A stretch of 50,093 bases of DNA from Oscillospiraceae bacterium (GTDB lineage: Bacteria; Bacillota; Clostridia; Oscillospirales; Ruminococcaceae). Positions 36,801 through 49,509 of this stretch are shown here, in pieces. Positions within the stretch are counted from its first letter, which is position 1. Each line of letters begins with the position of its first letter. Where the stretch lies: assembly GCA_017550285.1 (NCBI GenBank), contig JAFZPP010000009.1, positions 1 through 50,093 on the forward strand, given 5' to 3'. The notes beneath the pieces were generated by a model. It saw only the letters and a program-made list of their open reading frames with translations, made no database searches and was not told the DNA's origin. Position numbers and translations under genes: made by a program.

Positions 36801-38252
36801 CATCTGAAAACAGTAAAGTTCAGCAACAAAATTGAATCGATTCCAAACGATTGCTTCGACGGATGCACTGCTTTGACATCACTTCCGGCGGAAAACATCC
36901 GCTATATCAACCGGGGCGGATTCCGCGGCTGTACGTCTTTGAATATCAGCACATGGGGCAGTCTCGAATATATGTATACCGGCGCTTTTGAGGGCTGCAC
37001 GGCATTGACATCGTTTTCAATTCCGGAAAAGATGACCGAGGTGCCGAATGCCTGCTTCAAGAACTGTACGTCACTGAAAAACATTGAACTGAACGACAAA
37101 ATCACATGGATCGGAGTAGAAGCATTTGACGGCTGTTCCGCACTGACAACGATCCGTTTTCCGGCGGAATGTGGCTGCATCAGTGCTTATGCATTCCGCG
37201 GCTGTTCGGCGCTTGTTTCGGTTTGGCTGCCGGAAAAGCTGACCACAGTATATGAAAGAGCATTCGCAAACTGCACAGCTCTGGAATCCGTCACATCTAT
37301 GACAAAGCAAACATTCAGTGTCAATACGGATACATTTCTCAACTGCCCGAAGCTGAAAGAACTGACATATCATTCATCGGGCCTTTCATACGGTTCACAT
37401 TCGCTCGGATATCTGCTGGATGCAGACGGTAATTATACGAAAAATACGGTACCTGTGAATGTCATAGGTTTATACAACAGCAGTCTCGAAACGCTGATCA
37501 GTGAGGGCGTAATCACCTGTACCCCGGTCGGTCTGACCTACCATGTGATTCCGGAAACGGATACAATCTGCATTGACTTTATCGCTGTACCGGAAGGTTT
37601 CTCTGAGAATACCTGTTATATTCCTGCATCGATTGACGGAAAAACCGTAGCCGTGATCGGAAACGGAACACAGTGTGTTGCAGAGGAATCTTTCAAAAGC
37701 ATCTATATTCCGGAGACCGTGACAGAGATCGGCGATTATGCATTTACCTGCTGCCGCACATTACGGAGCTTTTCTGTGAACAGAGACAGTCAGCTGAAAC
37801 GGATTGGTTTGCAGGCTTTTTACGGTACCGAAATGCAAAAAGATGTACAGATCAGACATGGTGAGATGTATTTTGCCGGGATTCTGTACCGTTGCTTCAC
37901 AGATCAGGAACAGTATACGGTGTCAACCGCCTGTAATCAGATTGCTGCGGATGCCTTTGCGCATAACCGTGATTTGAAGCAGATCGTTCTGCATGATAAA
38001 GTGACCGCGATTGATGACGGAGCGTTTTATGACTGCCAGAATCTCGAAACAATCACCATTCCGGATTCGGTTGTTTCGCTCGGAACCGGTGCATTTGTAG
38101 ACTGTACAGCACTGAAAAGTGCCAAACTCGGCAGCGGACTTGCGGAAATCGGCAGTGATCTGTTTGCGGGTTGTACGGCACTGGAAACAGTGACCGCGCC
38201 GGAAGGCTCTGCCGCCGCAAAATGGTGCAAAGATAACGGCTATACCAAATAA
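33876..38252 (+). CDS. Secreted BspA-type leucine-rich repeat protein
   Basis: 1458 residues from ATG 33876, 7 bases after CGGAGGT; a GTG at 33867 is an alternative. An N-terminal hydrophobic Ala-rich signal segment is followed by a Thr/Ala-rich linker made of 12-residue repeats. A long run of LRR_5 (BspA/Treponema pallidum type) repeats of the form AFxGCTALxxIxLPxxxTxI is broken once by a second Thr-rich linker near TTAPVETGITTTTTTVVTI. No dockerin or sortase motif is seen. It overlaps the giant gene's stop by 14 bases, so the two are coupled and probably act together at the cell surface. A role in binding plant or host material is inference. Confidence 0.9.
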   Translation: MKLNNIGSARKLRRTAAAFAAAVMAAAAMHTASVDARVQLPQYGLTNPAVRFAAVTAAETVPGTTTVAATTVSAVRTTTAAVNTTTKAAVTTSAQTTAKASATTSVQTTAKASATTSAQTTAKASATTSAQTTTKAAAATSGQTTTKVAVTISAQTTTKAAVVTSGQTTVTSAATSSAQTVTTTTADDTQKDFTYEIMDGKATLLRWNSTAPDAVIPEQVEGCPVTAITSYAFQDVRSTLRTVRIPESVTVIPAKLFYECSQLDHADIPETVTEIGNSAFAGCFSLYLDHLPAALKSVGSEAFQYIGMLRNLELSADISYASNAFSCVNCIQRLYISSDIRLSDYMFYGCGNLVYVCLTDSIENYKLPEGLFYRCRKLRRFDWHGTWKSVPGSFFQGCASLELEIPKELTAIGSFAFFGCNQLGPELMIPNSCSVGMYAFGDCTGIRTFRFAGSAILNDGCFSNTGVTTLNLPEKATAVPAQAFKNCKQLAELTFPNTVRSIGNEAFSGCTALKSLEIPSVLTGIGEQAFLNCIALEKAGISDQNALTAVPANMFSGCTALKDITLPEHITELKDYAFAGCTALTGIHLPKKLNTVGAHAFSGSGLESIVFPDTVRTLGEACLSGCGMLKKVTLPAHITILPVSMVTSCKALETITLPQTVHLIGRQAFENCIALKQISIPQSVTSVGEGAFKGCTALTELLLPDALLEVSNSLCQNCTSLKSVQIPESVTYIGASAFYCTALESVKLPSALQTIRSSAFRQTPLKEIHIPDTVTSLEYAAFSCCKELTAVTLPNGITILDSSVFELCEKLTSVSIPDTVTVFSMHCFTGCTALKEIKLPPNIGEIKDQPYRDSSTIYQAQKGSLTAASAEKAGIHLTLIEPAVTTTAPVETGITTTTTTVVTISENGISYTRTGNSLYVTGCDPKAKELNIPEKSGDLQVAGLWADAFAGSSVETVTLPDTIAYLPEGAFRNAAHLKTVKFSNKIESIPNDCFDGCTALTSLPAENIRYINRGGFRGCTSLNISTWGSLEYMYTGAFEGCTALTSFSIPEKMTEVPNACFKNCTSLKNIELNDKITWIGVEAFDGCSALTTIRFPAECGCISAYAFRGCSALVSVWLPEKLTTVYERAFANCTALESVTSMTKQTFSVNTDTFLNCPKLKELTYHSSGLSYGSHSLGYLLDADGNYTKNTVPVNVIGLYNSSLETLISEGVITCTPVGLTYHVIPETDTICIDFIAVPEGFSENTCYIPASIDGKTVAVIGNGTQCVAEESFKSIYIPETVTEIGDYAFTCCRTLRSFSVNRDSQLKRIGLQAFYGTEMQKDVQIRHGEMYFAGILYRCFTDQEQYTVSTACNQIAADAFAHNRDLKQIVLHDKVTAIDDGAFYDCQNLETITIPDSVVSLGTGAFVDCTALKSAKLGSGLAEIGSDLFAGCTALETVTAPEGSAAAKWCKDNGYTK
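34125..34376 (+). repeat. Coding 36-bp tandem repeat, seven units
   Basis: Seven exact-length 36-bp units encode the 12-residue repeat TTAKASATTSAQ and variants. Units 2-4 are nearly identical and units 5-7 diverge, which fits recent slippage expansion of the linker. Confidence 0.85.
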
Positions 38253-38257
38253 AACAC

Positions 38258-38287
38258 AGGACGGGATCCCTTTCGGGGTCCCGTCCT
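38258..38287 (+). terminator. Terminator hairpin after the LRR protein gene
   Basis: 13-position stem with one mismatch (38258-38270 with 38275-38287) and a TTTC loop. The following TGCTTATAT is only moderately U-rich. Confidence 0.65.
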
Positions 38288-38329
38288 TGCTTATATATAT
38301 ATTGAAATTGACGCAGCTGTTTTGCGGCT

Positions 38330-39907
38330 TCAATAAGCCCCTGTCGGAACCGACGTGAACGCCATGCTGATCTGATCAGACAGCTTCATGGATTTGTCCA
38401 CTGCAATCAGGATATTCCATGCAGCCATATCGTCTGACCCGATCAATGGGAAGTGCTCTTCAATCATGACAGTATCTTCCGTGATGTCGGTCACCAGAGG
38501 TCTGATTGAACCGCTGGTTTCCGTGAACACCGCGATGAGCAGATTATGTCCGCTGAACCATTCTTCTGAATAAGCAGCGGCTTTCTCAGCTGAAAAGGCA
38601 TTCGTTTCCGCGATGTATGCATCGAGCTCCCAGCGTGAAGTGATCTTTTGAACGTGCGGTTCGATTCCGCTGTTCCAGTGGATACGGATATACTCCGCAT
38701 GGAATTTGCCGTACAGCTCGTTCCATGAAGCCGGAATTTCGGCGAGTGTGTTGCAGACGTAATAAAGCAGGATCAGCTGTGCATCCTCAACGGTAATCTC
38801 ATTGTCTCCGTTGACATCGGCTGCGGCTTTCTGCGCTTCCGTCAGACCGCTGTCCAGCCCTGCCATGCTGTTTGTATAGGCATTCAGTGCAAGCTGTGCA
38901 TCCTCAATACTGACGACTGCATTCTGATCTAAGTCGCCGGAGACAACAGAGAGCAGTGCAGGATCGGTCTGGGTATCATCTAGCGCGGAGAATGTAAATC
39001 CGTGCTTGTTCGCGTACTGTTCGGCGGTAGAGCCTGCATAGCCGTGAATACAGCAGTGTTCAGTAAAATAGCCGGTTTCCGCTTGGATTGCGCCTTCTGT
39101 ATCCGCGATTTTGCAGTCCGGATTGTATATATAGATATTTGCATTGCCGCTGAGCCCGAATGCAAGATCCTCAATGGAATCAACGCTCTTGGAAATGACA
39201 ACGTTATTCAGTGGGCATTTATTAAATGCGCCGTATTCAATGGTTTTCACACCCGTCGGAATGACTACGCCTTTCAGATTGATGCATTCGCTGAATGCGC
39301 CCCTTCCGATGATGCTGACGCTTTCGGGAATTGTGACGCCTGTGAGCGCTTTATTCTCATAAAAAGCTCCGCCGCCGATACCGGTCAGACCATCCGGCAG
39401 AGTGACATTGCCGCTGGTCGTCGCTGCATCGACCAGAACATGATTGACAATGACCAGAGGATCCGTTTTTCGATGATTCTCAAGCCACGGTGTATCTTCA
39501 AATGTCAGACCGCCGAACCATGTCGCGCTTTCCGGAAGTGTGATGTCTGTCAGATTCGTGCAGCCCGAAAACGCACACTCTTCAATGCGTGTCACGCCTG
39601 CCGGAACGGTAACGGCTGTGATGCCTTTGATATCCGAAAACGCATATTCTTCGATGACCGTGACCGGTTTGCCCTGAAATACAGACGGAATTGTGACCGC
39701 GCCTGTATAGTCCTCGTTGCAGCAGTAGACCGCTGCATGATCGGCATAAACCGAATAGGTGAGCAGTTCGTTTTCATCCTCGATATGTTCATCGTTTTCT
39801 TCTGCGGCAGCCGTAAACCCGCCGATGCGGTCCGGCATACACGCGGCAGAGGCAGTCACAGCAAAGCTGAGTGCGCAGATCAGGGCGCCTTTTTGTAATT
39901 GCTTCAT
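38330..39907 (-). CDS. LRR - dockerin protein with PrcB-like C-terminus
   Basis: 525 residues with a signal peptide (QLQKGALICALSFAVTASAACM). About six BspA-type LRR_5 repeats fill residues 75-290 (AFSGCTNLTDITLPES and similar). A dockerin at about 320-385 (GDLDQNAVVSIEDAQLAL, ADVNGDNEITVEDAQLIL) follows. The last 130 residues (EWFSGHNLLIAVFTETSGSIRPLVTDI) resemble the PrcB protease-regulator domain, a tentative call. The ATG follows AGGAGG. This places an LRR binding module on the cellulosome, whereas its LRR neighbour has no dockerin. Confidence 0.87.
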   Translation of the reverse strand: MKQLQKGALICALSFAVTASAACMPDRIGGFTAAAEENDEHIEDENELLTYSVYADHAAVYCCNEDYTGAVTIPSVFQGKPVTVIEEYAFSDIKGITAVTVPAGVTRIEECAFSGCTNLTDITLPESATWFGGLTFEDTPWLENHRKTDPLVIVNHVLVDAATTSGNVTLPDGLTGIGGGAFYENKALTGVTIPESVSIIGRGAFSECINLKGVVIPTGVKTIEYGAFNKCPLNNVVISKSVDSIEDLAFGLSGNANIYIYNPDCKIADTEGAIQAETGYFTEHCCIHGYAGSTAEQYANKHGFTFSALDDTQTDPALLSVVSGDLDQNAVVSIEDAQLALNAYTNSMAGLDSGLTEAQKAAADVNGDNEITVEDAQLILLYYVCNTLAEIPASWNELYGKFHAEYIRIHWNSGIEPHVQKITSRWELDAYIAETNAFSAEKAAAYSEEWFSGHNLLIAVFTETSGSIRPLVTDITEDTVMIEEHFPLIGSDDMAAWNILIAVDKSMKLSDQISMAFTSVPTGAY

Positions 39908-39956
39908 GAATAAACCTCCTGTCCTTTCTCATCAGTCGGAAAGATTATGTCCTTAT

Positions 39957-39985
39957 ATTATATCATATAACATAAGAAAATACAA
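39957..39985 (-). promoter_or_regulatory. Promoter of the LRR-dockerin gene
   Basis: Minus-strand -35 TTGTAT (39980-39985), -10 TATAAT (39957-39962), 17-base spacer. Its 45-base leader has no hairpin. Confidence 0.75.
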
Positions 39986-40097
39986 TAGGGGAACCGGAAA
40001 AAGATTCGGACAATGAACTGCATGGGAGATAAAACGGATGCAGGCACTGCCTGCTTATATCATATTATCATATATAATGCAAGACAGGAGATATATT

Positions 40098-40942
<845 letters not shown>

Positions 40943-42502
40943 TCATTCAACAATCAGATCTTCGGTTTTTGCTGCTTCCTTTTTGAATGCGAGTACGGCA
41001 TCTTCATAGGTATCCGCGCTTTTTGCGGCAAGCATAAAACTCCATGAAAGATCGTAATCAAGTCTCGAATAGTTTTCGGAGATGTCAAGCGCCTTTGCGT
41101 TCCGGTCGAGGACAGCAATCTCAGACTGACCGCCGAGCAGCGGATTAGACCGCTTCACTTTTTGCATCGCAGCGGAGCTGTTGACAAATTCGCCGGTTTT
41201 CTCCGCATAGGAAGCCATGGTATCCGGATTGACGACAAAATGCTCAATGAAATCATGTGCCGCCTTGCCGGAATTGCATTTGGGCGAAAGCGTCAGGAAG
41301 GCGCCGCCCCAATACCATGCCGCCGGACCTTCGGTGATATTGTACAGACCGTAAGTTTTGCCGTTTACATCACCCTCAACATTGCTCAGCATGGTACCTT
41401 CAAAGAGACACCATGTCGTGAAGAAGTAACCGAGGGTGCGGTCATTCTGTCCGACCGTGTACCAGTCATCGCTCCACTGTTCGGCATCGGTAATGTATCC
41501 GTTCTTCCGGAACGAGGTCATGCGCTGATAGAATGCCTCGGCATCCTTTCCGAATTGCAGCTTATTGTCTGCATCGGTCCATGCGCTGTGTTTGCCCTGT
41601 GTCCACGGGAATGCGGTGCCGGCAAAGGTCGCAGCCATAGCCGTTTTGCCGTCGGATGCGGTTTTGAGCTTTGCTGCGGTCTCCGTAAATGCATCCCAGT
41701 CCTTGACGAGCGGCTGCATTTCCTCCGGCGTGCTGACGCCGAGATACTTCTTTGCAAGGTCGCTTCTGTATACATAGCCGCCCGGCGTTGCCTGCCATGT
41801 GACGGCTTTCAGCACACCATTTGCATTCTTTCCGATTGTCAGCGTATAGGGATAATTGCCGCTGAAATCAGATTCCGAGAAGCCGAGATCGGTGATCGGT
41901 GCGGAATATTCGTCATTGTCAGTATAATCGCGCAGCCAGTTAAACTCCGTGACGTAAAGGTCAACATCCTCGTTGCCTGCAAAATAGCTGGCATACATCT
42001 CTCTGGATTCTCCGCCGGCGCTGCCGACATTCCAATATTCCACTTTGTTCTTATACTGCGGATATGCTTCGGTAAAGTGCTCAAACATCTTATGGATGTC
42101 GTCGTCGGTCCAGCAGAGTACGGTGAGTTGTTCGTCGCTGTTCGGAAAACGGTTTTCGGGCTTTTCAGGGCTGAGCAGCGATTCCCATGTGACAGCGGTG
42201 CCTGCGAGCGTATTGTTGACGTAATAGAGCAGTATCAGCTGTGCATCCTCGACGGAAACCTCCTTGTCTCCGTTGACATTGGCAGCGGCTTTCTGCGTTT
42301 CCGTCAGACCGCTGTCCATGCCTGCGACGGTCTGCGCATATGCGTTGAGCGTCAGCTGTGCGTCCTCGACGCTGACCTTGCCGTCGCCGTCCAGATCACC
42401 GCGCAGAACATCTGCCGCGGACGGACTGATGCGCGGACTGCCGGTACCGAATACGGCGAGTGCCGCGGCGATTGCGATTGCTTTCGTGATGTAAAGTTTC
42501 AT
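40943..42502 (-). CDS. Dockerin - extracellular sugar-binding protein fusion
   Basis: 519 residues. A signal peptide without lipobox cysteine (AIAIAAALAVFGTGS) leads straight into a dockerin at 33-100 (GDLDGDGKVSVEDAQLTL, ANVNGDKEVSVEDAQLIL). From about 125 to the end it is an ABC-transporter family 1 solute-binding protein: LTVLCWTDDDIHKMFEHFTEAYP, DVDLYVTEFNWLRDYTD, YVYRSDLAKKYLGVSTPEEM, and aromatic residues such as WYWGGAFLTL that usually stack on sugars. Such proteins are normally lipid-anchored beside a permease; here the anchor is replaced by a dockerin and no permease genes are adjacent. Ribosome binding site AAAGGAG. Confidence 0.9.
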   Translation of the reverse strand: MKLYITKAIAIAAALAVFGTGSPRISPSAADVLRGDLDGDGKVSVEDAQLTLNAYAQTVAGMDSGLTETQKAAANVNGDKEVSVEDAQLILLYYVNNTLAGTAVTWESLLSPEKPENRFPNSDEQLTVLCWTDDDIHKMFEHFTEAYPQYKNKVEYWNVGSAGGESREMYASYFAGNEDVDLYVTEFNWLRDYTDNDEYSAPITDLGFSESDFSGNYPYTLTIGKNANGVLKAVTWQATPGGYVYRSDLAKKYLGVSTPEEMQPLVKDWDAFTETAAKLKTASDGKTAMAATFAGTAFPWTQGKHSAWTDADNKLQFGKDAEAFYQRMTSFRKNGYITDAEQWSDDWYTVGQNDRTLGYFFTTWCLFEGTMLSNVEGDVNGKTYGLYNITEGPAAWYWGGAFLTLSPKCNSGKAAHDFIEHFVVNPDTMASYAEKTGEFVNSSAAMQKVKRSNPLLGGQSEIAVLDRNAKALDISENYSRLDYDLSWSFMLAAKSADTYEDAVLAFKKEAAKTEDLIVE

Positions 42503-42718: not shown

Positions 42719-43723
42719 TCACGGTGCGTCCTGCGCCTCTTTGCTCAATCCGAGCATCTCGTACTGCCGGAGCACCCGATCCGCTGCCTGCGCGCGGAAA
42801 TCCGGCGGCCCGAGAATCTCCAGAACCGGACCGAAGCTCAGCAATTGAATCAGCAGTTCGGTTTCGTCCTGCTTATCGTAATAGAGCTGTACGGTAAGGG
42901 TTCCGGTCTCCACGTCACGCTCGGTGTGCTTTTCGTAGGAAGCGAATTCCATGAGAAACCGTTCGACGGCATTGCGCTCGGTTGTCACGCGTACGGTCAC
43001 GGGTGTTCGGTTTCTGCGCAACTGAAAGTAATCTGTCAGCGAGATCTCGCCATCATAGTGCCTGCCGGTTTCAGTGACCTGCTCGATTCTGCCTAAATTG
43101 ATTATTCCGCTGCCGGCGAGCCGGTTTCCTCGGATGCTGCGGCAGCATAAGCGGAATTTATCGTTTTTGCGTGAATATTCGATTGCCAGCGGGAGATACT
43201 GCATTGCCATGCGCCGCCCGCCGCCTGTCTGGAACCGAATTTGTACGAATTCTTTCGTGCGGAGCGCATGCAGGAGCGCACGGAAATGTTCTCTGTATGC
43301 TGGGTCTGTGAACGGGTCGCCGTCCGAAAAGCGGTCGGTATACCGGAAAAGATCCGGCTGCCACAGCGGTGAAACATCCTCAAGTGCGTCCGTCAGCGCT
43401 GCGAATGTTTTGTCATCGAAGAAAAGCTGCATTTTCGGGTCGGAGAGCCGCGCTTTCAGCCAGCGCTTTTGCAGCAGCGTCAGCGGCATGACCGGTTTGT
43501 TTTTGGTCACGGCAGCAAGGGTGCCGTCCGGATTCCGGCGCAGCAGACCCCAGTCGGATCCGTCTTTTTGCGGGAGCAGCTTTTGCGGAACAAAGAGCAC
43601 CGAATCGCGGAAGCCCTCTTTTGCAACAATATCCTGCACACGGCGGTCGGTCAGCGGTGCCTCCTTCAGAACCCGCGCCGCGATCCGGAAATATGCGCCG
43701 TACATCTCATGAAACAGTGTCAT
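42719..43723 (-). CDS. WYL-domain protein
   Basis: 334 residues from ATG 43723 behind GGAGGTGA; an upstream frame to 43765 has no site. The C-terminal half shows a WYL-type Sm-like region (VQIRFQTGGGRRMAMQYLPLAIEYSRKNDKFRLCCRSI, then INLGRIEQV) and the WCX extension (PVTVRVTTERNAVERFLMEFASYEKH). The N-terminus is helical without an obvious HTH, unlike its upstream partner. WYL domains sense nucleic acid or nucleotide ligands. It overlaps the other WYL gene by 17 bases, so the two are made together, perhaps as a hetero-oligomer. Confidence 0.85.
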   Translation of the reverse strand: MTLFHEMYGAYFRIAARVLKEAPLTDRRVQDIVAKEGFRDSVLFVPQKLLPQKDGSDWGLLRRNPDGTLAAVTKNKPVMPLTLLQKRWLKARLSDPKMQLFFDDKTFAALTDALEDVSPLWQPDLFRYTDRFSDGDPFTDPAYREHFRALLHALRTKEFVQIRFQTGGGRRMAMQYLPLAIEYSRKNDKFRLCCRSIRGNRLAGSGIINLGRIEQVTETGRHYDGEISLTDYFQLRRNRTPVTVRVTTERNAVERFLMEFASYEKHTERDVETGTLTVQLYYDKQDETELLIQLLSFGPVLEILGPPDFRAQAADRVLRQYEMLGLSKEAQDAP

Positions 43724-44981
43724 CTGCGTCACCTCCGTACATGTCCCGCATCCGGCAGATATCATAATAGAACCTGCCGCGCATCTGCCGGGTTCCGCCC
43801 TCGACGGACACGATTCTGCCGATCAGCGTCTTTGCCCAGTGCATGACCTCGTTCGGGTCGAATGCATCAACGGTCAGCGTATAGAGTCCCTCGCCGGATT
43901 TTTCCAGCACACCAATGCGCTTTTCCCGTTCCAGCCGCTCGCGGATATAGCCCTCGGTGTACTCATTGAGTGCGATGGTCAGCCTGACCGGTTCCACTGC
44001 GCCAAGATCATGCCGCATCCCGAATGATACCCCGAACACATGCGCCAGATTCCGGCGGTAGGCCTCTGCCAGCTTGTCATAATCCGGCTCCGGTACGGAG
44101 CGCTTCACATTGCGGATGAAGTCCAGCCGGAACGCATGAAACCGCTTCTGCTCAGGGATATAAGCCGCGAGATAGCGCCTGCCAGTCTGCACGGATGCAA
44201 GAATCTGCATCGGCACGACCTCAAAGCTGCCGCCCTCAGAATCCGGACGTCGCTGCGTCTTTGCGCTGATCGTCCGGAAGCAGACGCGCCGCTTTTCTGC
44301 GGTTGCCGCGAGAAATTCCGGCAGCACGGCATCTTCGAGCGTATGGACAATATAATGGTGCTTGCGGTAAAAGATATCGTTCCGCAGACCGGTACTGCGG
44401 AGTATCTGTGCGCCGATGACGCCGAATTCCTCGTCCTCGGAATAAAACCGGACTGCCTCGTCCAGCCCCGGACAGTCTGCAAGCAGCTTTGCGACGGTCT
44501 CCGGCACGATGCGGTAATACGCGGTTTTGCCCTGCATTTCTGCGATCAGAAGCCCCTCTGCGGCATATTCCCGCAGCTTATTGCGCACAGTCTGCTCGTC
44601 AAACACGGCTGCGTATTCGTTGCTGAGCCGGTCTGTCAGTGTCCGGAGATTCTGCGGCTGTCCGTCTGCCAGCAGATCGAGCAGCAGAAAATGCAGCCGG
44701 ATATCATTATCCGTAAAGCTTTTGGCGCCGTATGCCTGATACAGCGGGTTTTCGGGAATATGCCCGCTGTCCACGGAAATGGAGACCTGCCGCCCGTGTA
44801 CGGAGTCATCATAGCGGATGACGTCCCCGAGCCAGCTTTCTGCGCGGCGCTTCTCATCGTCGTAGGTGCGGCTGCTTTTGCGGACGAATTCGCCGCGTGC
44901 CTTGCAGCCGTAAATAAAGAAGTCGCGGATATAGTCCCGTGTTTTTTCAAAGGTTTTGATGAGCTCCGAAAAGCCTGCCAT
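43707..44981 (-). CDS. WYL-domain transcription regulator
   Basis: 424 residues from ATG 44981 behind GAGGTGAG. The N-terminal 190 residues contain a winged-helix region (IRLHFLLLDLLADGQPQNLRTLTDRLSNEY, TVRNKLREYAAEGLLIAEMQGKTAYYRI). The WYL domain follows (KRRVCFRTISAK, FEVVPMQILASVQTGRRYLAAYIPEQKRFHAFRLDFI) and then a WCX-like C-terminus. It is divergent from rtcB with 190 bases between starts, the usual position for a regulator of the neighbouring operon. WYL regulators have been linked with RtcB/Ro60 RNA-repair clusters, so control of rtcB is the likely role (inference). Confidence 0.88.
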   Translation of the reverse strand: MAGFSELIKTFEKTRDYIRDFFIYGCKARGEFVRKSSRTYDDEKRRAESWLGDVIRYDDSVHGRQVSISVDSGHIPENPLYQAYGAKSFTDNDIRLHFLLLDLLADGQPQNLRTLTDRLSNEYAAVFDEQTVRNKLREYAAEGLLIAEMQGKTAYYRIVPETVAKLLADCPGLDEAVRFYSEDEEFGVIGAQILRSTGLRNDIFYRKHHYIVHTLEDAVLPEFLAATAEKRRVCFRTISAKTQRRPDSEGGSFEVVPMQILASVQTGRRYLAAYIPEQKRFHAFRLDFIRNVKRSVPEPDYDKLAEAYRRNLAHVFGVSFGMRHDLGAVEPVRLTIALNEYTEGYIRERLEREKRIGVLEKSGEGLYTLTVDAFDPNEVMHWAKTLIGRIVSVEGGTRQMRGRFYYDICRMRDMYGGDADDTVS

Positions 44982-45006
44982 GTTCTCACCTCTTTGCGTT
45001 TTTTTT

Positions 45007-45035
45007 ATTGTATCATATTTTGATGTCCGATGCAA
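45007..45035 (-). promoter_or_regulatory. Promoter of the WYL operon
   Basis: Minus-strand -35 TTGCAT (45030-45035), -10 TACAAT (45007-45012), 17-base spacer; a standard sigma-A promoter, unlike the rtcB promoter facing it. Confidence 0.75.
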
Positions 45036-45061
45036 GCGCAGCGGAACGGTGCGCAGAAAAA

Positions 45062-45110
45062 TTTACATGATTTTCCGATCCGGCTGTGATATACTAAGCA
45101 CATGAACAGG
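45062..45110 (+). promoter_or_regulatory. rtcB promoter with paired ACATGA boxes
   Basis: TTTACATGATTTTC (45062-45075) is identical to 46421-46434. A -10 TATACT lies at 45090-45095. The -35 position 17 bases upstream reads ATGATT, which is not consensus. ACATGA occurs at 45065 and again at 45100, 35 bases apart, as in the second promoter. A weak -35 covered by a conserved box suggests activator control. A 7-bp hairpin (45127-45133 with 45139-45145) is in the leader. Confidence 0.7.
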
Positions 45111-45171
45111 AGAGAAACACAAGCAGCGGAAGCACAGGGCTTCCGGAAACTACACAAAGGAGCTGAGAAAG

Positions 45172-46401
45172 ATGTTTGTGATCTCGGAACAGCATGCAGT
45201 GCCGGTGAAAATCTGGCAGGAAGGAAAAGATGTGCTCGACAACAAATGCATCGAGCAGGCACAGCATCTTTCCAAGCTTCCCTTCGCATTCAAGTGGATT
45301 GCGCTGATGCCCGATACCCACGCAGGCAAGGGCATGCCGATCGGCGGTGTCATCGCATGTGAGGATGCCGTCATCCCGAATGCCGTCGGTGTCGATATCG
45401 GCTGCGGCATGGGCTTTGTCCAGACCGATATTCCGGTCTCGGTGCTGCGGGAGACTGTCACTGGCAGCGGAAATCTGGTACAGGCGATCTGCGGGGATAT
45501 CCTGCGGAATGTGCCGACCGGCTTTGGGCATTATCGGCAGCCTCAGGCATCCGCGGTGCTTGACCGCGCCAAGGCAGAGATGCAGAAGTATGAAGCGGAC
45601 GCGGTGCTGCTCCCTCAACTTGATGAGGGATATTTCCAGGCGGGAACCCTCGGCGGCGGAAACCACTTCATTGAGCTTCAGGAGGACGAAAACGGTCTTT
45701 GCTGCATCATGCTGCACTCCGGCAGCCGGCATTTCGGCAATATCGTCGGGCAGTATTTCAACAAGATCGCCGCAGCGCTGAATGCAAAGTGGCATTCGGT
45801 GGTCGATCCTGCATGGCAGCTTCCGTTCCTGCCGGTGGATTCCGACGAGGGTCGGCGCTATCTGGAATGGATGCAGCTTTCGATGGATTTTGCCTACGAA
45901 AACCGTGCGATCATGCTGAAGAAGGTTAAGGAGATCTTCGCAAAGTATGTGGAGAAGTACACCGGTTCGGTACCGGTTTTCACCGGTGAGATCAACTGCC
46001 ACCACAACTACGCCGCACTGGAGCATCACTACGGCAAAAATGTCTGGGTACACCGGAAGGGCGCGATCCGTGCACGCGAGGGCGAGCTTGCGATCATCCC
46101 TGGTGCGATGGGCTCTTACAGCTACATCGTCCGCGGCAAGGGCAACCCCGAGAGCTTCATGTCCTCGTCGCACGGAGCGGGACGTACCTGCTCCCGGACT
46201 GCCGCGGTGCAGAATTACCCAGTGCAGGAGGTCATGACCGATCTGCATGAGAATAATGTCGTCCTTGCAAAGCACTCCAAGAATGACGTGGCAGAGGAAT
46301 ACCGACTGGCATATAAGGACATCAATCAGGTCATGGCGCAGCAGTCTGATCTGGTCGAACCGGTCAAGCGTATGTTCACGGTCGGCGTTGTCAAGGGCTG
46401 A
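45172..46401 (+). CDS. rtcB: RtcB RNA-splicing ligase
   Basis: 409 residues, the E. coli RtcB length. RtcB joins 2',3'-cyclic phosphate (or 3'-phosphate) and 5'-OH RNA ends using GTP and Mn2+, repairing cleaved tRNA or rRNA. All key residues are present: Asp75 and Cys78 in GVDIGCGMG, His165 in GGGNHFIE, His182 in HSGSR, His278 in NCHHNY, and the guanylylated His334 in SSHGAGR. Ribosome binding site AAAGGAG. No rtcA cyclase is present. The ncRNA region and Ro60-like gene follow on the same strand. Confidence 0.97.
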   Translation: MFVISEQHAVPVKIWQEGKDVLDNKCIEQAQHLSKLPFAFKWIALMPDTHAGKGMPIGGVIACEDAVIPNAVGVDIGCGMGFVQTDIPVSVLRETVTGSGNLVQAICGDILRNVPTGFGHYRQPQASAVLDRAKAEMQKYEADAVLLPQLDEGYFQAGTLGGGNHFIELQEDENGLCCIMLHSGSRHFGNIVGQYFNKIAAALNAKWHSVVDPAWQLPFLPVDSDEGRRYLEWMQLSMDFAYENRAIMLKKVKEIFAKYVEKYTGSVPVFTGEINCHHNYAALEHHYGKNVWVHRKGAIRAREGELAIIPGAMGSYSYIVRGKGNPESFMSSSHGAGRTCSRTAAVQNYPVQEVMTDLHENNVVLAKHSKNDVAEEYRLAYKDINQVMAQQSDLVEPVKRMFTVGVVKG

Positions 46402-46420
46402 AAAAAGCCTCGCAGAGTTT

Positions 46421-46469
46421 TTTACATGATTTTCATGCCGCTTTGTGGTATGATACAGACATGAAAGGC
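46421..46469 (+). promoter_or_regulatory. Second ACATGA promoter, upstream of the ncRNA region
   Basis: TTTACATGATTTTC (46421-46434) and -10 TATGAT (46449-46454), with exactly the same 14-base gap as in the rtcB promoter. ACATGA boxes start at 46424 and 46459, again 35 bases apart. It should drive the structured RNA and the DUF2828 gene under the same signal as rtcB. Just before it is a weak hairpin with TTTTTT (46394-46420) after rtcB. Confidence 0.7.
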
Positions 46470-46518
46470 TCATACAGCGATCTGAAAAGAAAACCAGATG
46501 CTTCACAGTGCCTTGGAA

Positions 46519-46688
46519 GTCTGCCGGATTGGTTCAGACAGCAGAAGCTTTGTCCCACGCGGAGGTGCGGGAGCGATCTTTGCGCCGCGTCAAAAACGAA
46601 CCGCGTTTTGGCAGATTCCGACAAAGACAGCAGCAGCAAGAATGAATTGGTCCTTTGCAGGTTCGAATCCTGCCGTGCCGGTGCAGAC
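46519..46688 (+). ncRNA. Candidate Y-RNA-like / tRNA-like RNA A
   Basis: A perfect tRNA T-arm is at 46657-46673: stem GCAGG/CCTGC, 7-base loop TTCGAAT. The outer ends pair: 46519-46527 (GTCTGCCGG) with 46678-46688 (CCGG, TG bulge, CAGAC), 9 bp. Inside, 46532-46547 can form a short D-like arm and 46548-46564 an anticodon-like arm (CTTTG/CGGAG, 7-base loop). About 90 bases containing an AAAACG/CGTTTT hairpin separate this from the T-arm. The layout, a stem holding a tRNA mimic beside a Ro60-like gene, is that of bacterial Y RNAs such as YrlA. True ends are unknown; the promoter predicts a start near 46460. Confidence 0.6.
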
Positions 46689-46717
46689 CGGTATCGAAAA
46701 TGCTGTCTTGTATTCCC

Positions 46718-46748
46718 GCAGAAGCCGGGCATTCTGTCCGGTTTCTGC
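46718..46748 (+). other. Strong hairpin between the two tRNA-like elements
   Basis: 11-bp stem with one G-U pair (46718-46728 with 46738-46748), 9-base loop, followed by AAAAA rather than U. It is probably part of the structured RNA or a processing site. Confidence 0.6.
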
Positions 46749-46760
46749 AAAAATGAAAGA

Positions 46761-46821
46761 GCGGTGTATACAGCAAATTCGGCAGCCGGAAACGGCGGGT
46801 TCAACTCCCAAAGTACACCGC
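46761..46821 (+). ncRNA. Candidate mini tRNA-like RNA B
   Basis: An 8-bp perfect acceptor-like stem GCGGTGTA (46761-46768) with TACACCGC (46814-46821). Inside are a GCCG-GAAA-CGGC tetraloop hairpin (46785-46796) and a T-arm-like GGG-TTCAACT-CCC (46797-46809), with a GG at 46781-46782 that could make the D-loop/T-loop contact. At 61 bases it is shorter than a tRNA and has no anticodon arm, so it is a mimic rather than a tRNA gene. Confidence 0.5.
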
Positions 46822-46834
46822 GAACACAAAAAAC

Positions 46835-46904
46835 GATCGGAACGGCACATACAGCAACCAAAACATCACCTTTTAAGTGAATGACTGTGCCGTGTGAACC
46901 GATC
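46835..46904 (+). promoter_or_regulatory. Long structured leader immediately before the DUF2828 start
   Basis: 46835-46840 pairs with 46899-46904 (GATCGG/CCGATC) and 46843-46849 with 46886-46892 (CGGCACA/TGTGCCG), separated by an internal loop. A small TCAC/GTGA helix is inside. The ribosome binding site AGGAGG (46911-46916) follows 6 bases later. It could be a protein-binding site for self-control. Confidence 0.6.
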
Positions 46905-46922
46905 TGAAAAAGGAGGATCACC

Positions 46923-48425
46923 ATGAATTTTCTGAATCATATGAAGCAGGAATCCAACCTGACTTATACCGAGAACGGTGCACTGACGCATGCATCCTCC
47001 GGTTCTGAATGTCTGGATCTGTTCTTCCGTGCCGGCGGGATGCGCGGCGCGTCGGAACAGGAGATAGCGGATGTTGTCATCCGCGCATTTGCCGCAGACC
47101 CCGCCAAGGCGATGAAGATTCTGTTCTTCATCCGCGATGCCCGCGGCGGTCTCGGCGAGCGTCGGTTCTTCCGCGTTGCCATGCAGAAGCTGACGATGCT
47201 GGATGCTGCGGCAGTCCGCCGGAATATCGGCGTGTTTGCGGAGTATGGCAGATTTGACGACCTGTGTGCGATGCTGGGTACGCCCTGCGAGGCTGACGCA
47301 CTGGAGATCATCCGGGAACAGCTGACCGCAGACTGGCTCGGCATGGAAAACGGTCAGCCGGTCTCTCTGCTGGCAAAGTGGCTGCCGTCTGTCAATGCTT
47401 CTGCTGCGGAGACCTGCGCGGCAGGCAAGCGGGTCGCAAAGGCGCTCGGCATGTCCGAAAAGCAGTACCGTCACACGCTGGCGGCGCTGCGGAAGTACAC
47501 GGACATCATCGAGAACCGGCTGCGCGAGCGTGACTACACGTTTGACTACGCAAAGCAGGCATCCCGCGCAATGTTCAAGTACCGCAAGGCGTTCATCCGC
47601 AACGACGGCGAGCGCTATCAGGCGTATCTCGGCGCAGTGGAACGCGGTGAAGCGATCCTGCACGCAGACGCGCTGTACCCCTATGACATCATCCGCGCAT
47701 GCGGCGGCAATGACCGCACTGCATGGACTGCGTTCCGCGACATTTCCGCTCTGACCGCTGAGGAGCGGCGTTCGCTGGATGCGGCATGGAAGAACCTGCC
47801 GGTATTTGGTGCGCGCAGCGAGAATGCGATCGCGGTGGTGGACGGCTCCGGCTCCATGTACATAAACGGCAGCTCGCCCCGCCCGATCGACGCGGCGCTG
47901 TCTCTGGGCATTTACTTTGCAGAGCACAACAAGGGTGCCTTTGCCAATCACTTCATCACGTTTTCCCGTACGCCGAGACTTGTGGAGATCAAGGGAAGAG
48001 ATATCGCGGAAAAGGTGCAGTTCTGCGCGACCTTCAACGAGGCGTGCAATACGAATCTGGAAGCGGTCTTTGACCTGATCCTGCGCACGGCGGTACAGAA
48101 CCGGATTCCGCAGAGCGAGATGCCCGCACGGCTGTACATCATCTCCGATATGGAATTTGACTGTGTCTCGGGCGGCAGCAATCAGACGCTCTTTGTGGCA
48201 ATGCGGCAGAATTACGCGGCATACGGCTACCGTCTGCCGGAGATCGTGTTCTGGAATGTTGCAAGCCGGCATCAGAATATTCCCGTTTCGCGGTCAGAGA
48301 CCGGCGCGGCGTTGGTATCCGGCGCATCGCCTGCGATCTTTGACATGGTGATCGGCGGTGAGATCTCTCCGGAGATCGTCATGGAGCAGATCATCGGCAG
48401 CGAGCGGTATGCAAAGATCTCATAA
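46923..48425 (+). CDS. DUF2828 / Ro60-like (TROVE-related) vWA protein
   Basis: 500 residues. The N-terminal 290 residues are helical, with the DUF2828 marks ENGALTHASSGSECLDLFF, IRDARGGLGERRFF and EYGRFDDL. The C-terminal von Willebrand A domain has a full MIDAS: DGSGS (Asp307-Ser311), Thr377 in NTNLE, and Asp409 in ISDMEFD. The same build, a helical-repeat ring plus vWA, is that of Ro60/TROVE proteins, which bind Y RNAs and misfolded RNA. Its place next to rtcB and tRNA-like RNA elements supports an RNA quality-control role. Start chosen for AGGAGG 6 bases upstream. Confidence 0.88.
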   Translation: MNFLNHMKQESNLTYTENGALTHASSGSECLDLFFRAGGMRGASEQEIADVVIRAFAADPAKAMKILFFIRDARGGLGERRFFRVAMQKLTMLDAAAVRRNIGVFAEYGRFDDLCAMLGTPCEADALEIIREQLTADWLGMENGQPVSLLAKWLPSVNASAAETCAAGKRVAKALGMSEKQYRHTLAALRKYTDIIENRLRERDYTFDYAKQASRAMFKYRKAFIRNDGERYQAYLGAVERGEAILHADALYPYDIIRACGGNDRTAWTAFRDISALTAEERRSLDAAWKNLPVFGARSENAIAVVDGSGSMYINGSSPRPIDAALSLGIYFAEHNKGAFANHFITFSRTPRLVEIKGRDIAEKVQFCATFNEACNTNLEAVFDLILRTAVQNRIPQSEMPARLYIISDMEFDCVSGGSNQTLFVAMRQNYAAYGYRLPEIVFWNVASRHQNIPVSRSETGAALVSGASPAIFDMVIGGEISPEIVMEQIIGSERYAKIS

Positions 48426-48597: not shown

Positions 48598-49509
48598 TTA
48601 AAATGCAAAGGCTGAATTGACACCGGTCAGGAAGCGCTGCTCTGCCAGATAGCCTCTTTGTGCGTACTTTGCAAGATCCCAGTCTGCCATTGTGATTTTA
48701 CCGTCATTATTGATATCGCCGGCTTCTTTGGTATACATTCCGTTGAACGCCTGCGGATACTGATATGTTCCCTCTGCCATCTGCTTGATGATAGCGACAT
48801 CCGTGCTGTTCACGAGTGTATCGCCGTTGACATCACCGGACATACAAGGACGGTCATACCAGACCAGCGAATATGCATTTGAGCCGATTTTGATCTTGTC
48901 ATTCTGAACTGTTGCGCTGTTGTTCCAGCGAATCTGGCAGGTGTTATCCCAGTTACAGTCGGCAAATTTGATCGTACCGCTTTTTACCTCTGTGACGAAA
49001 ATGCTGTGGTCAACCGTTCCGTTATTTGTGGGAATACGGATACGAAGCTGATCGCCGACGCGCGGTTTATAATTGGCGCAGCTGTGCTGACGCAGCCATA
49101 CATTGCAGCCACCGTAGAAGTCATAGGCAAGTTTTCTTGCAAAGCCGTAGCATTGTGTAACATAGGTCATTATTTCCGTTTTAGGCAACTGCGTATAGCC
49201 AACGTTCACTGTGGTATTGAACTTAAAATGTGTGCAGTAAGTGTCTCTTGGTATCCCTCCGATGCGCCGGTGATTTTCCGCTGAACAGGGATGATCGGTA
49301 TAGGTATCCGGATCGCCGCTGTTCCAGTATTTTCCATCAGGGAATTTGTACTGCTCACTCACCATGAAAAATGTCTGGTAGGGCGTGGTGAACGCTTCTG
49401 CCTGAATCGTTGTTGACTTGTTGTAGGTTGCAGATACCGGAAATGCCGAACAAACTGCAACTGTCGCAAGTAACGCTGCCCCGATTCTGATAAAATGCTT
49501 GTGTTTCAT
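48598..49509 (-). CDS. Cysteine peptidase/amidase-like protein with dockerin
   Basis: 303 residues with a signal peptide (FIRIGAALLATVAVCSAFPVSA). The middle domain has the layout of papain-like NlpC/CHAP enzymes: Cys120 in TQCYGFARKL, His168 in GTVDHSIFV, and a polar residue after the next strand (FADCNW). Such enzymes usually cut peptidoglycan or peptides; the exact family is not certain. A dockerin fills 225-300 (SGDVNGDTLVNSTDVAII, AGDINNDGKITMADWDLA). AAGGAG precedes the ATG. Confidence 0.82.
   Translation of the reverse strand: MKHKHFIRIGAALLATVAVCSAFPVSATYNKSTTIQAEAFTTPYQTFFMVSEQYKFPDGKYWNSGDPDTYTDHPCSAENHRRIGGIPRDTYCTHFKFNTTVNVGYTQLPKTEIMTYVTQCYGFARKLAYDFYGGCNVWLRQHSCANYKPRVGDQLRIRIPTNNGTVDHSIFVTEVKSGTIKFADCNWDNTCQIRWNNSATVQNDKIKIGSNAYSLVWYDRPCMSGDVNGDTLVNSTDVAIIKQMAEGTYQYPQAFNGMYTKEAGDINNDGKITMADWDLAKYAQRGYLAEQRFLTGVNSAFAF

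What the first reader, a model, noticed from the sequence alone, without database searches (positions are those of the whole stretch)
42719..48425. Complete RNA-repair island: two WYL regulators, RtcB, tRNA-like RNAs and a DUF2828 Ro60-like protein
All catalytic residues of RtcB and the full MIDAS of the Ro60-like protein are visible. Between them is a 520-base gap rich in tRNA-like structure. Known systems (Salmonella rsr-yrlA-rtcBA; RtcB/TROVE neighbourhoods described in comparative genomics) pair a Ro60 protein, a Y RNA and RtcB. Here the Ro60 role seems taken by DUF2828, rtcA is absent, and two WYL proteins replace the sigma-54 activator RtcR. A tRNA-mimic RNA partner for DUF2828 would be, to my knowledge, little described.
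Basis: partly seen in the sequence, partly recalled or inferred. Interest (0 to 1): 0.85.

Follow-up and report, generated by a model that had tools for sequence, protein, structure and literature searches.

The report
tRNA-mimic RNA array beside Ro60-like protein
A gut bacterium's RNA-repair locus, like many phages, carries a Ro60-like protein gene next to a row of tiny RNA units that share one handle and each display a different head, often a piece of a transfer RNA, most likely as bait for enzymes that attack tRNAs.

Summary
A WYL pair, RtcB, a 521-base gap and a DUF2828 protein are present. The gap holds five tandem small-RNA units, each a ~7-9 bp clamp, then NN-ACAGCA(A) (ACAGCG in unit 1), a head, and the clamp's complement plus G. 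In the window one head holds a T-arm, one a short T-loop-like hairpin, one an anticodon arm with the tRNA-Lys(UUU) loop; two are not recognised tRNA parts. Units lie upstream of DUF2828 in 72 of 72 dereplicated clostridial loci (minus strand 0), around it in 44 of 65 viral loci (minus strand 1) and in 16 of 22 named phage or plasmid loci (0). Of 309 units, 82 have anticodon-type hairpins; 59 of these loops equal real tRNA loops (shuffles 1.25 of 7.6). Close relatives can differ by anticodon alone. Viral anticodon heads favour Lys-UUU (31 of 70 clusters; 21 of 144 tRNA genes with that core). RtcB was found in 45 of 80 clostridial and 1 of 80 viral stretches, so repair is optional. Best reading: a Ro60/Y-RNA-like particle displaying interchangeable tRNA decoys; the anatomy is well supported, the function inferred. 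Nearest kin: YrlA Y RNA, whose Rfam cut-off is not met.

The parts
42719..43765 (-). WYL/WCX-domain regulator (second of the pair)
   Evidence: PADLOC WYL 7.3e-11; Pfam WCX 7.5e-06; homologs accompany DUF2828 in clostridia
43707..45035 (-). WYL-domain regulator, divergent from rtcB
   Evidence: PADLOC WYL 1.5e-11; at least one WYL homolog in 54 of 80 clostridial stretches, 0 of 80 viral
45172..46401 (+). RtcB 3'-phosphate RNA ligase
   Evidence: Pfam RtcB 3.1e-108; active-site motifs kept against PDB 1uc2
46420..46456 (+). possible promoter/operator of the array: TTTTACATGATTTTCATG ... TATGATA
   Evidence: window sequence; similar boxes before the first unit in L017, L018, L019, L022, L024 and L029, by eye; the strict sigma-70 scan found none
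46465..46515 (+). unit 1: clamp AAGGC-C / GTGCCTT (one mismatch here), ACAGCG, small hairpin head, no recognised tRNA part
   Evidence: R1 21.8 bits; clamp complete in L017, L018 and L019; L020 stretch was cut short
46529..46605 (+). unit 2: clamp GGTTC/GAACC, ACAGCAG, GC-rich hairpin head, no recognised tRNA part
   Evidence: clamp kept in 5 of 5 genus members in the consensus fold
46624..46710 (+). unit 3: clamp AAGACAGCA/TGCTGTCTT, T-arm head GCAGG-TTCGAAT-CCTGC at 46657-46673 plus a second hairpin
   Evidence: z -3.36; clamp kept in 5 of 5; weak YrlA alignment 46635-46715
46761..46822 (+). unit 4: clamp GCGGTGTA/TACACCGC, hairpin plus short T-loop-like hairpin GGG-TTCAACT-CCC at 46797-46809
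   Evidence: z -4.20; consensus fold
46842..46894 (+). unit 5: clamp ACGGCACA/TGTGCCGT, ACAGCAA, anticodon-arm head TCAC-CTTTTAA-GTGA (loop 46870-46876 identical to this genome's tRNA-Lys UUU loop)
   Evidence: R1 48.1 bits; consensus fold; own tRNA-Lys loop CTTTTAA on a different stem; its single-sequence minimum-energy fold does not show this hairpin
46923..48425 (+). DUF2828/DUF7788 Ro60-like protein with complete vWA MIDAS
   Evidence: Pfam, PHROG 850 'RNA-binding protein' 6.4e-135, hhalign to TROVE proteins

Best explanation
The gap makes a set of five small noncoding RNAs that are partners of the DUF2828 protein, a Ro60-like protein with a vWA/MIDAS domain. Each RNA has the same handle: a 7-9 bp clamp formed by its ends, then an asymmetric internal loop with the signature ACAGCA(A). 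I infer that the protein binds this handle. Beyond the handle each RNA shows a different head, many of which imitate one part of a tRNA: an anticodon arm with a genuine anticodon loop, a T-arm, or, in some phages, a whole circularly permuted tRNA body. Most likely (inferred) the particle is a rack of tRNA decoys. Enzymes that attack or recognise tRNAs, above all anticodon nucleases set off during phage-host conflict, meet the decoys, which are held out of translation and can be re-aimed by changing the anticodon loop. Where RtcB is next door it can mend cleaved decoys or tRNAs, and the divergent WYL pair would switch the locus on. SHOWN (computationally): units, signature, tRNA-part heads, linkage to DUF2828, anticodon switches, Lys-UUU bias in the viral heads sampled. 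INFERRED: transcription as separate RNAs, binding by DUF2828, decoy action, repair, WYL control.
For: Handle: in dereplicated loci, the 7-mer ending 2 nt before ACAGCA has a perfect complement downstream at 223 of 314 upstream sites (clostridia) and 59 of 149 (viral); registers other than 0-2 give at most 12 of 314 and 7 of 149. Linkage: 72 of 72 clostridial loci have a unit (motif AC[AC]GCA, 7-bp clamp, then G) within 2.5 kb upstream, 0 on the minus strand; with the full ACAGCAA motif 66 of 72 vs 1; viral 44 of 65 vs 1 on the minus strand and 0 in shuffles; named records 16 of 22 vs 0 and 0. Reciprocal: a unit pattern blind to DUF2828 gives DUF2828 in 42 of 88 clamped loci vs 4 of 135 unclamped ones, 49 of 49 same strand; of 45 records of the other 46 loci 19 hold it elsewhere and 0 hold TROVE. 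Genome-wide: 16 of 18 DUF2828 genomes have model hits vs 3 of 179 others. Heads: T-arms in 53 of 309 units (shuffles 1.2); anticodon-type hairpins, T-loops excluded, in 82 (shuffles 7.6), 59 with a loop identical to a real tRNA loop (shuffles 1.25). Position 34 is G or U in 72 of 82 and A in 6 of 82 (shuffles 33% A). Anticodon-only switches: window loop CTTTTAA (Lys) vs CTGTTAA (Asn) in the relative whose DUF2828 is 98% identical; five of 70 viral clusters mix anticodons. Lys-UUU in 31 of 70 viral unit clusters vs 21 of 144 viral tRNA genes with the same core, Fisher p 6e-6. In phages DUF2828 sits among tRNA genes: 45 of 65 loci, 199 ARAGORN tRNAs, all on its strand. A decoy role was already floated for Salmonella YrlA (passage).
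Against: No expression or binding data for this locus, and none of decoy action; the PNPase-tether role known for Rsr/YrlA would also use tRNA-like heads. 158 of 309 units carry no T-arm, anticodon arm or D-arm by my tests; units 1 and 2 of the window are such. The single-sequence fold of unit 5 does not show the anticodon hairpin, and the covariation term of the five-genome consensus fold is small (-0.6 kcal/mol), so that fold rests mostly on conservation. By script, units are missing in 6 of 22 named loci and 21 of 65 viral loci. DUF2828 itself is patchy (16 of 61 near genomes including one fragment; 18 of 197 in the family). Anticodon nuclease targets are recalled, not tested.
Confidence: 0.5

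Rival explanations
1. Y-RNA-like scaffold: the units tether DUF2828 to an exoribonuclease (as Rsr-YrlA-PNPase) or gate its ring, and the tRNA-like heads are only docking surfaces for RNA degradation or quality control.
For: Closest known RNA is YrlA: Enterococcus phage EFDG1 stretches score 44.9 and 34.2 bits to RF02553. Rsr/YrlA/PNPase precedent (review passages). PMC12282133 offers this as one of several possibilities for Listeria phage CKA15 (passages).
Against: A docking surface would not be expected to need many different, genuine anticodon loops, anticodon-only switching or a Lys-UUU bias. YrlA is described as resembling the D, T and acceptor arms, not the anticodon arm.
Confidence: 0.25
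2. Damage sensor: anticodon-arm units are sacrificial. Cleavage by tRNA nucleases yields 2',3'-cyclic ends that are sensed by the WYL pair, and RtcB resets the units.
For: A WYL pair diverges from rtcB or the array in many clostridial loci; in Salmonella the rtc operon responds to tRNA fragments (PMC7790460 passages; review passage).
Against: Viral stretches have units and DUF2828 but WYL homologs in 0 of 80 and RtcB in 1 of 80, so sensing through these proteins cannot be the general function.
Confidence: 0.17
3. The units are permuted or split tRNA genes that are processed, with RtcB, into working tRNAs.
For: EFDG1 and momo units have the order anticodon-place hairpin, T-arm, closed acceptor, D-arm, as in permuted tRNA genes (recalled); RtcB is a tRNA-splicing ligase.
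Against: Median unit length is 64 nt including the clamp, and 158 of 309 show none of three tRNA arms, so most are too small for a tRNA body; RtcB was not found in 79 of 80 viral stretches.
Confidence: 0.04
4. 5' leader: the units act in cis to control expression of the DUF2828 gene.
For: In clostridia they lie directly upstream on the same strand; in Vibrio phage nt-1 one short clamp overlaps the start of the gene.
Against: In 14 of 65 viral loci and in LeBron, Faith1, momo, ESh21 and BE22 units lie downstream of the gene.
Confidence: 0.06

Closest known systems
YrlA (bacterial Y RNA, RF02553) with Rsr/Ro60 (TROVE)
   Same: Small RNA closed by a terminal stem with a tRNA-like head, encoded beside a Ro-like protein and often RtcB. 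In the Rfam alignment the T-arm comes first inside the stem, as in the phage units.
   Different: Several units per locus; ACAGCAA handle; many single-arm heads; anticodon arms with real, switchable anticodons; DUF2828 in place of TROVE. Below the YrlA gathering score in each stretch scanned; two TROVE loci here also stayed below it (39.9 and 39.8 bits).
Salmonella rsr-yrlBA-rtcBA RNA repair operon
   Same: RtcB plus Ro-like protein plus tRNA-like RNAs; its YrlA was suggested as a possible competitive inhibitor of the anticodon nuclease (PMC7790460 passage).
   Different: No RtcA match in this genome; WYL pair beside it instead of RtcR; RtcB dispensable across relatives.
Listeria phage CKA15 putative Y RNAs and Rsr-like CKA15_055 (PMC12282133)
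   Same: Rsr-like protein, detected in particles there, with highly transcribed unannotated regions within 2 kb upstream on the same strand; the Listeria phage List-36 (Pecentumvirus) has three ACAGCAA units just upstream of its DUF2828 gene.
   Different: In the passages read the paper proposes Y RNAs among several options, without a sequence model or tRNA-arm assignment; its transcribed regions are not shown to be these units.
'Ro-like RNA binding protein' of mycobacteriophages (LeBron, Faith1)
   Same: Same DUF2828 family at 37-38% identity; clamped ACAGCAA units downstream, two in LeBron and three in Faith1 by script.
   Different: No RNA feature is annotated in the stretches fetched.

Membership tests
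Ro60/TROVE protein | TROVE domain (PF05731) detected | tested here: not met
   Pfam finds only DUF7788 and DUF2828; genome-wide TROVE search 0
Ro60/TROVE protein | C-terminal vWA domain with complete MIDAS | tested here: met
   D307, S309, S311, T377, D409 invariant in 20 of 20; MIDAS pattern recalled
Ro60/TROVE protein | Sequence-profile kinship to Ro60 | tested here: inconclusive
   hhalign 78.6%, E 1.7e-5, residues 201-493 only; PDB top hit Ro60 E 0.038; with the narrower alignment no PDB hit at E<=1
Ro60/TROVE protein | HEAT-repeat ring fold | not testable with these tools
   structure prediction switched off
YrlA Y RNA (RF02553) | Reaches Rfam gathering score (69 bits) | tested here: not met
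   window 17.8 bits; EFDG1 44.9; 12 related loci none at gathering
YrlA Y RNA (RF02553) | 5' and 3' ends form a stem that carries a tRNA-like head | tested here: met
YrlA Y RNA (RF02553) | Head with T, acceptor and D arms | tested here: inconclusive
   clear folds in EFDG1 and momo; not in the FADO or BcoS-136 -1480 minimum-energy folds; window units have T-arm or anticodon arm only
YrlA Y RNA (RF02553) | Bound by a Ro-family protein | not testable with these tools
   needs co-purification
rtcBA RNA repair operon | rtcB present | tested here: met
rtcBA RNA repair operon | rtcA present | tested here: not met
rtcBA RNA repair operon | RtcR sigma-54 activator adjacent | tested here: not met
   the regulators beside rtcB are WYL proteins; RtcR was not searched genome-wide
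tRNA gene | Recognised by ARAGORN or RF00005 | tested here: not met

The most novel reading that the evidence does not exclude
A modular tRNA-decoy system: a Ro60-like ring carries a rack of interchangeable Y-like RNAs, many with a single tRNA arm as head, and phages and bacteria re-aim it by changing only the anticodon loop so as to track the anticodon nucleases they face (Lys-UUU foremost). It exists in topological isomers: permuted tRNAs with an open handle and, in one cyanophage, apparently real tRNAs with a closed handle inserted between D-arm and anticodon arm.
Probability: 0.35. Interest if true: 0.95.

Novelty: new variant of a known kind. Interest (0 to 1): 0.82.

Why it matters
Why bacterial Y RNAs mimic tRNAs is an open question (my judgement). 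Here the mimicry is split into single, readable pieces with named anticodons, in phages of tractable hosts. The protein is in 667 of 50,697 phage records; units were checked in 22 named phage or plasmid stretches and found in 16. If the heads are decoys, they name the enzymes they oppose, link Ro60 ribonucleoproteins to the tRNA front of phage-host conflict, and give the uncharacterised DUF2828 family a testable role. The signature (clamp, NN, ACAGCAA, clamp', G) would let annotators find units that ARAGORN and Rfam at gathering did not call in the window or in the 12 related loci scanned.

Tried and rejected
Coding explanation of the gap: only mechanical ORFs; the conserved blocks follow clamps and hairpins; no codon statistics were run. 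tRNA genes: none called. Simple YrlA membership: fails the gathering score. Repair as the core function: rejected because RtcB is optional. 'Loci with two anticodon arms always have two different anticodons' (18 of 18) is not counted as evidence, since random pairs would usually differ. Model hits without DUF2828: three genomes (G128, G170, G182); the G182 and G170 heads look, by eye, like Cys and Phe anticodon loops; left open. Extra hits on other contigs of G241 and G163 were not resolved. TROVE in the phylum: 6 of 249 genomes; in the 5 loci fetched the unit scan found three clamp-like matches in two (one in L283, two in L284), which I read as chance, and YrlA-like hits in L284 and L286.

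Biases to bear in mind: the 309 units and alignment A2 were selected for perfect clamps (A2 also for anticodon hairpins), so the covariation is partly by construction; the less biased tests are the register test, the free-NNN scan and the five-genome consensus fold. Model R1 was trained on DUF2828-linked units, some from assemblies that were then searched. The 442 ARAGORN tRNAs used as the loop reference and the 1040 used come from the session's loci and may include a few units. Earlier scans of the named loci used other rules and found other subsets; one search is the one counted. MT837221, a miss there, has ACAGCAG units. The literature statement rests in an open-access library only; no paper naming both RtcB and DUF2828 was found (0); the key Y RNA papers and Burroughs and Aravind 2016 are not held.

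Full report
What is there. The locus is divergent: two WYL-type regulators on the minus strand (42719-45035), then RtcB (45172-46401), a 521-base gap and DUF2828 (46923-48425) on the plus strand. RtcB keeps its active-site motifs against PDB 1uc2. The DUF2828 protein keeps the five MIDAS residues in 20 of 20 diverse members. RtcA and TROVE give no match in the genome. ARAGORN and Rfam at gathering find nothing in the window.

The gap is an array. Comparing DUF2828 upstream regions in 15 genomes (a sixteenth hit was a fragment) showed a repeated design: about 7-9 bases, two more (fewer in some), ACAGCA(A), a variable head, the complement of the first bases, then G. In the window there are five: 46465-46515, 46529-46605, 46624-46710, 46761-46822, 46842-46894. 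A consensus fold of five genus members, made without selecting for clamps, recovers all five; 17 of 102 pairs show a double-sided change, but the covariation term is only -0.6 kcal/mol, so the support there is mostly conservation. The three units folded alone do better than shuffles (z -3.4, -4.2, -2.6). A covariance model trained on other loci finds unit 5 at 48.1 bits and unit 1 at 21.8 bits in the window; unit 5 is its only hit at E<=0.01 in the 3.4-Mb genome under stricter filters.

The signature is real and in one register. Among 72 dereplicated clostridial and 65 viral DUF2828 loci, a 7-mer ending two bases before ACAGCA has its exact complement 26-200 nt downstream of the motif start at 223 of 314 and 59 of 149 sites. 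Registers 0 and 1, which overlap it, give 38 and 120, and 11 and 35; the other registers give at most 12 and 7. ACAGCAA occurs at 2.58 per kb in the upstream kilobase on the coding strand, 0.03 on the other strand and 0.11 elsewhere (clostridia; viral 2.14, 0.05, 0.21).

It belongs to DUF2828. With the motif AC[AC]GCA, a 7-bp perfect clamp and a following G, 72 of 72 clostridial loci have a unit within 2.5 kb upstream (236 units), 0 on the minus strand and 0 downstream; viral loci 30 of 65 upstream, 0 on the minus strand, 14 of 65 downstream. With full ACAGCAA, one G-U allowed, on both sides of the gene: clostridia 66 of 72 (minus strand 1, shuffles 1), viral 44 of 65 (1, 0), named phage or plasmid stretches 16 of 22 with 41 units (0, 0). 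The named carriers are Bacillus phages FADO and vB_BcoS-136, Enterococcus EFDG1, Escherichia momo, Shigella ESh21, Listeria List-36, Campylobacter F348 and CP39, Staphylococcus BE22, Aeromonas 4_4572, Sinorhizobium phiM12, Synechococcus BUCT-ZZ01, mycobacteriophages LeBron and Faith1, scaffold MT838485 and a Subdoligranulum plasmid. The six without are MT837221, nt-1, phiAS5, Alsa_1, Milchi and the Jeotgalibacillus plasmid. In 197 genomes of the family, the unit model hits 19, DUF2828 occurs in 18 (one a fragment) and both in 16; in all 16 the listed positions put the best unit on the gene's contig and strand, less than 2 kb upstream. In the reverse direction, a scan of viral contigs for ACAGCAA plus an anticodon-type core, blind to DUF2828, gives 88 loci with a clamp, 42 with DUF2828 in the held stretch, against 4 of 135 loci without a clamp; 49 of 49 such units are on the gene's strand. 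Of 45 records of the remaining 46 loci searched whole, 19 have DUF2828 outside the held stretch and 0 have TROVE; none of these records is rated 90% complete, so absence in the other 26 says little.

Many heads are pieces of tRNA. In 309 units, 53 hold a T-arm (TTCRANY loop on 4-5 pairs; shuffles 1.2, maximum 4). A mirror-image loop control gave 5 units against 113 for the anticodon type with T-arms included. Position 34 is G 36, U 36, A 6, C 4 of 82. About half of the units, 158 of 309, show none of T-arm, anticodon arm or D-arm by these tests. Unit 5 of the window carries CTTTTAA, identical to this genome's own tRNA-Lys loop, on a different stem.

Anticodons change while the hairpin stays. 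The relative L017 (DUF2828 98% identical) has CTGTTAA, the Asn loop, in unit 5: one base changed, at position 34; L020 has CTTTTCA. The same stem TTATC/GATAA carries CTGTCAC or CTGTCAA (Asp-type) or CTTTCAC (Glu) in different clostridia. Five of 70 viral unit clusters mix anticodons. In Campylobacter phages F348 and CP39 the matching unit has CTGATAA and CTGCTAA (listing).

Lys-UUU leads in the viral heads sampled. After clustering with the shorter core, 31 of 70 clusters are TTT, against 21 of 144 tRNA genes with that core in the viral loci (Fisher p 6e-6). That tRNA-Lys(UUU) is the target of the PrrC nuclease, and was reported for PARIS, is recalled, not tested.

Full-size units are permuted tRNAs. 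In EFDG1 and momo the minimum-energy fold gives a hairpin in the anticodon-arm place (loop CUGAAAA, Phe-type, in EFDG1), T-arm, acceptor stem closed by a short loop, and D-arm, all inside the clamp. EFDG1 stretches score 44.9, 34.2 and 28.4 bits to YrlA, below its cut-off of 69. FADO and the BcoS-136 unit at -1480 do not show the cloverleaf in their minimum-energy fold, although T-arm and D-arm strings are visible. Other units have the normal D - anticodon - T order by eye (L100 -642, Subdoligranulum plasmid -1601); Rfam's tRNA model matches these two in part, 38.9 and 45.7 bits.

Neighbours. At least one WYL homolog lies in 54 and an RtcB in 45 of 80 clostridial stretches (some stretches are cut by contig ends); in viral stretches 0 and 1 of 80. 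Two RtcB types are used: at least 50% identical to the window's in 33, the divergent type in 13. In phages DUF2828 lies among tRNA genes: 45 of 65 loci contain ARAGORN tRNAs, 199 in all, every one on the gene's strand and densest within about 3 kb; some may be units.

Is DUF2828 a Ro60? Pfam does not say so. A DUF2828 profile aligned to four TROVE proteins gives 78.6% probability, E 1.7e-5, over residues 201-493. Its best PDB hit is the 60-kDa SS-A/Ro protein (1yvp) at E 0.038; the narrower clostridial alignment had none at E<=1. Annotators of mycobacteriophages already call it Ro-like. I treat it as Ro60-like, not as a proven member.

Mechanism. A shared handle with different heads is how a protein would hold a set of interchangeable displays. 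The heads are what tRNA-recognising enzymes see, including the anticodon. Switching by anticodon alone and the Lys bias point to antagonists that read anticodons, so I commit to decoys or baits for anticodon nucleases, with RtcB as optional repair, at 0.5 overall; the anatomy itself I hold at about 0.9. The scaffold, sensor, tRNA-gene and leader readings are given as rivals.

What is known. YrlA resembles the D, T and acceptor arms and links Rsr to PNPase (PMC8394870 passages). In Salmonella the operon responds to tRNA fragments, and its YrlA was suggested as a possible competitive inhibitor of the anticodon nuclease (PMC7790460 passages): the decoy idea for a single Y RNA is therefore not mine. 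A jumbo phage survey mentions ROT/TROVE proteins with a tRNA-like partner (PMC7824862 passages). PMC12282133 (passages) reports a Listeria phage Rsr-like protein in particles and highly transcribed unannotated regions nearby, and suspects Y RNAs. I found no description of clamped multi-unit arrays or anticodon-arm Y RNAs in the searches listed, within the limits of that library.

Noticed in passing
L208 4084 and 4215 (Synechococcus phage BUCT-ZZ01, ON615601.1): Two tRNA-like genes with a CCA end (CCA or CCAG after the acceptor strand) carry the same insertion between D-arm and anticodon arm (CATTCTG-TAA-AGAATGAATTCTGCAATC), which reads like the 3' end of a unit set before the 5' start of a unit: a tRNA with a closed handle, the topological isomer of the permuted units. 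By eye.
   Followed up: partly
L514 2704, 2773, 5475 (minus-strand offsets): The same phage has further clamped units with a variant signature TCAGCAA instead of ACAGCAA, one with T-arm and D-arm strings; the signature used in the counts therefore undercounts.
   Followed up: partly
L200 about 492-913 and 913-1560 (Listeria phage List-36): Two long stretches without annotated genes each begin, by eye, with a TTGACA...TATAxT promoter; they fit the highly transcribed unannotated regions near tRNA genes described for phage CKA15 and are distinct from the three units at about 2152-2420.
   Followed up: no
L278 5167-5226 (genome G182): Orphan unit-like RNA with a Cys-type loop CTGCAAA in a genome without detected DUF2828; neighbouring ORFs look, by eye, like IspF and a DisA-type cyclase.
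   Followed up: partly
window 46716-46750: Strong hairpin between units 3 and 4 that lacks the ACAGCA signature and is largely kept in four of five relatives.
   Followed up: no
window 33867-42502 and 48598-49509: The island is flanked by leucine-rich-repeat-like (by eye) and dockerin-bearing proteins; I looked for no mobile-element genes in the rest of the window.
   Followed up: no
L201 2454-2500 (Vibrio phage nt-1): A short clamp (6 of 7 pairs) with ACAGCAA overlaps the start of the DUF2828 gene, possibly autoregulatory.
   Followed up: no
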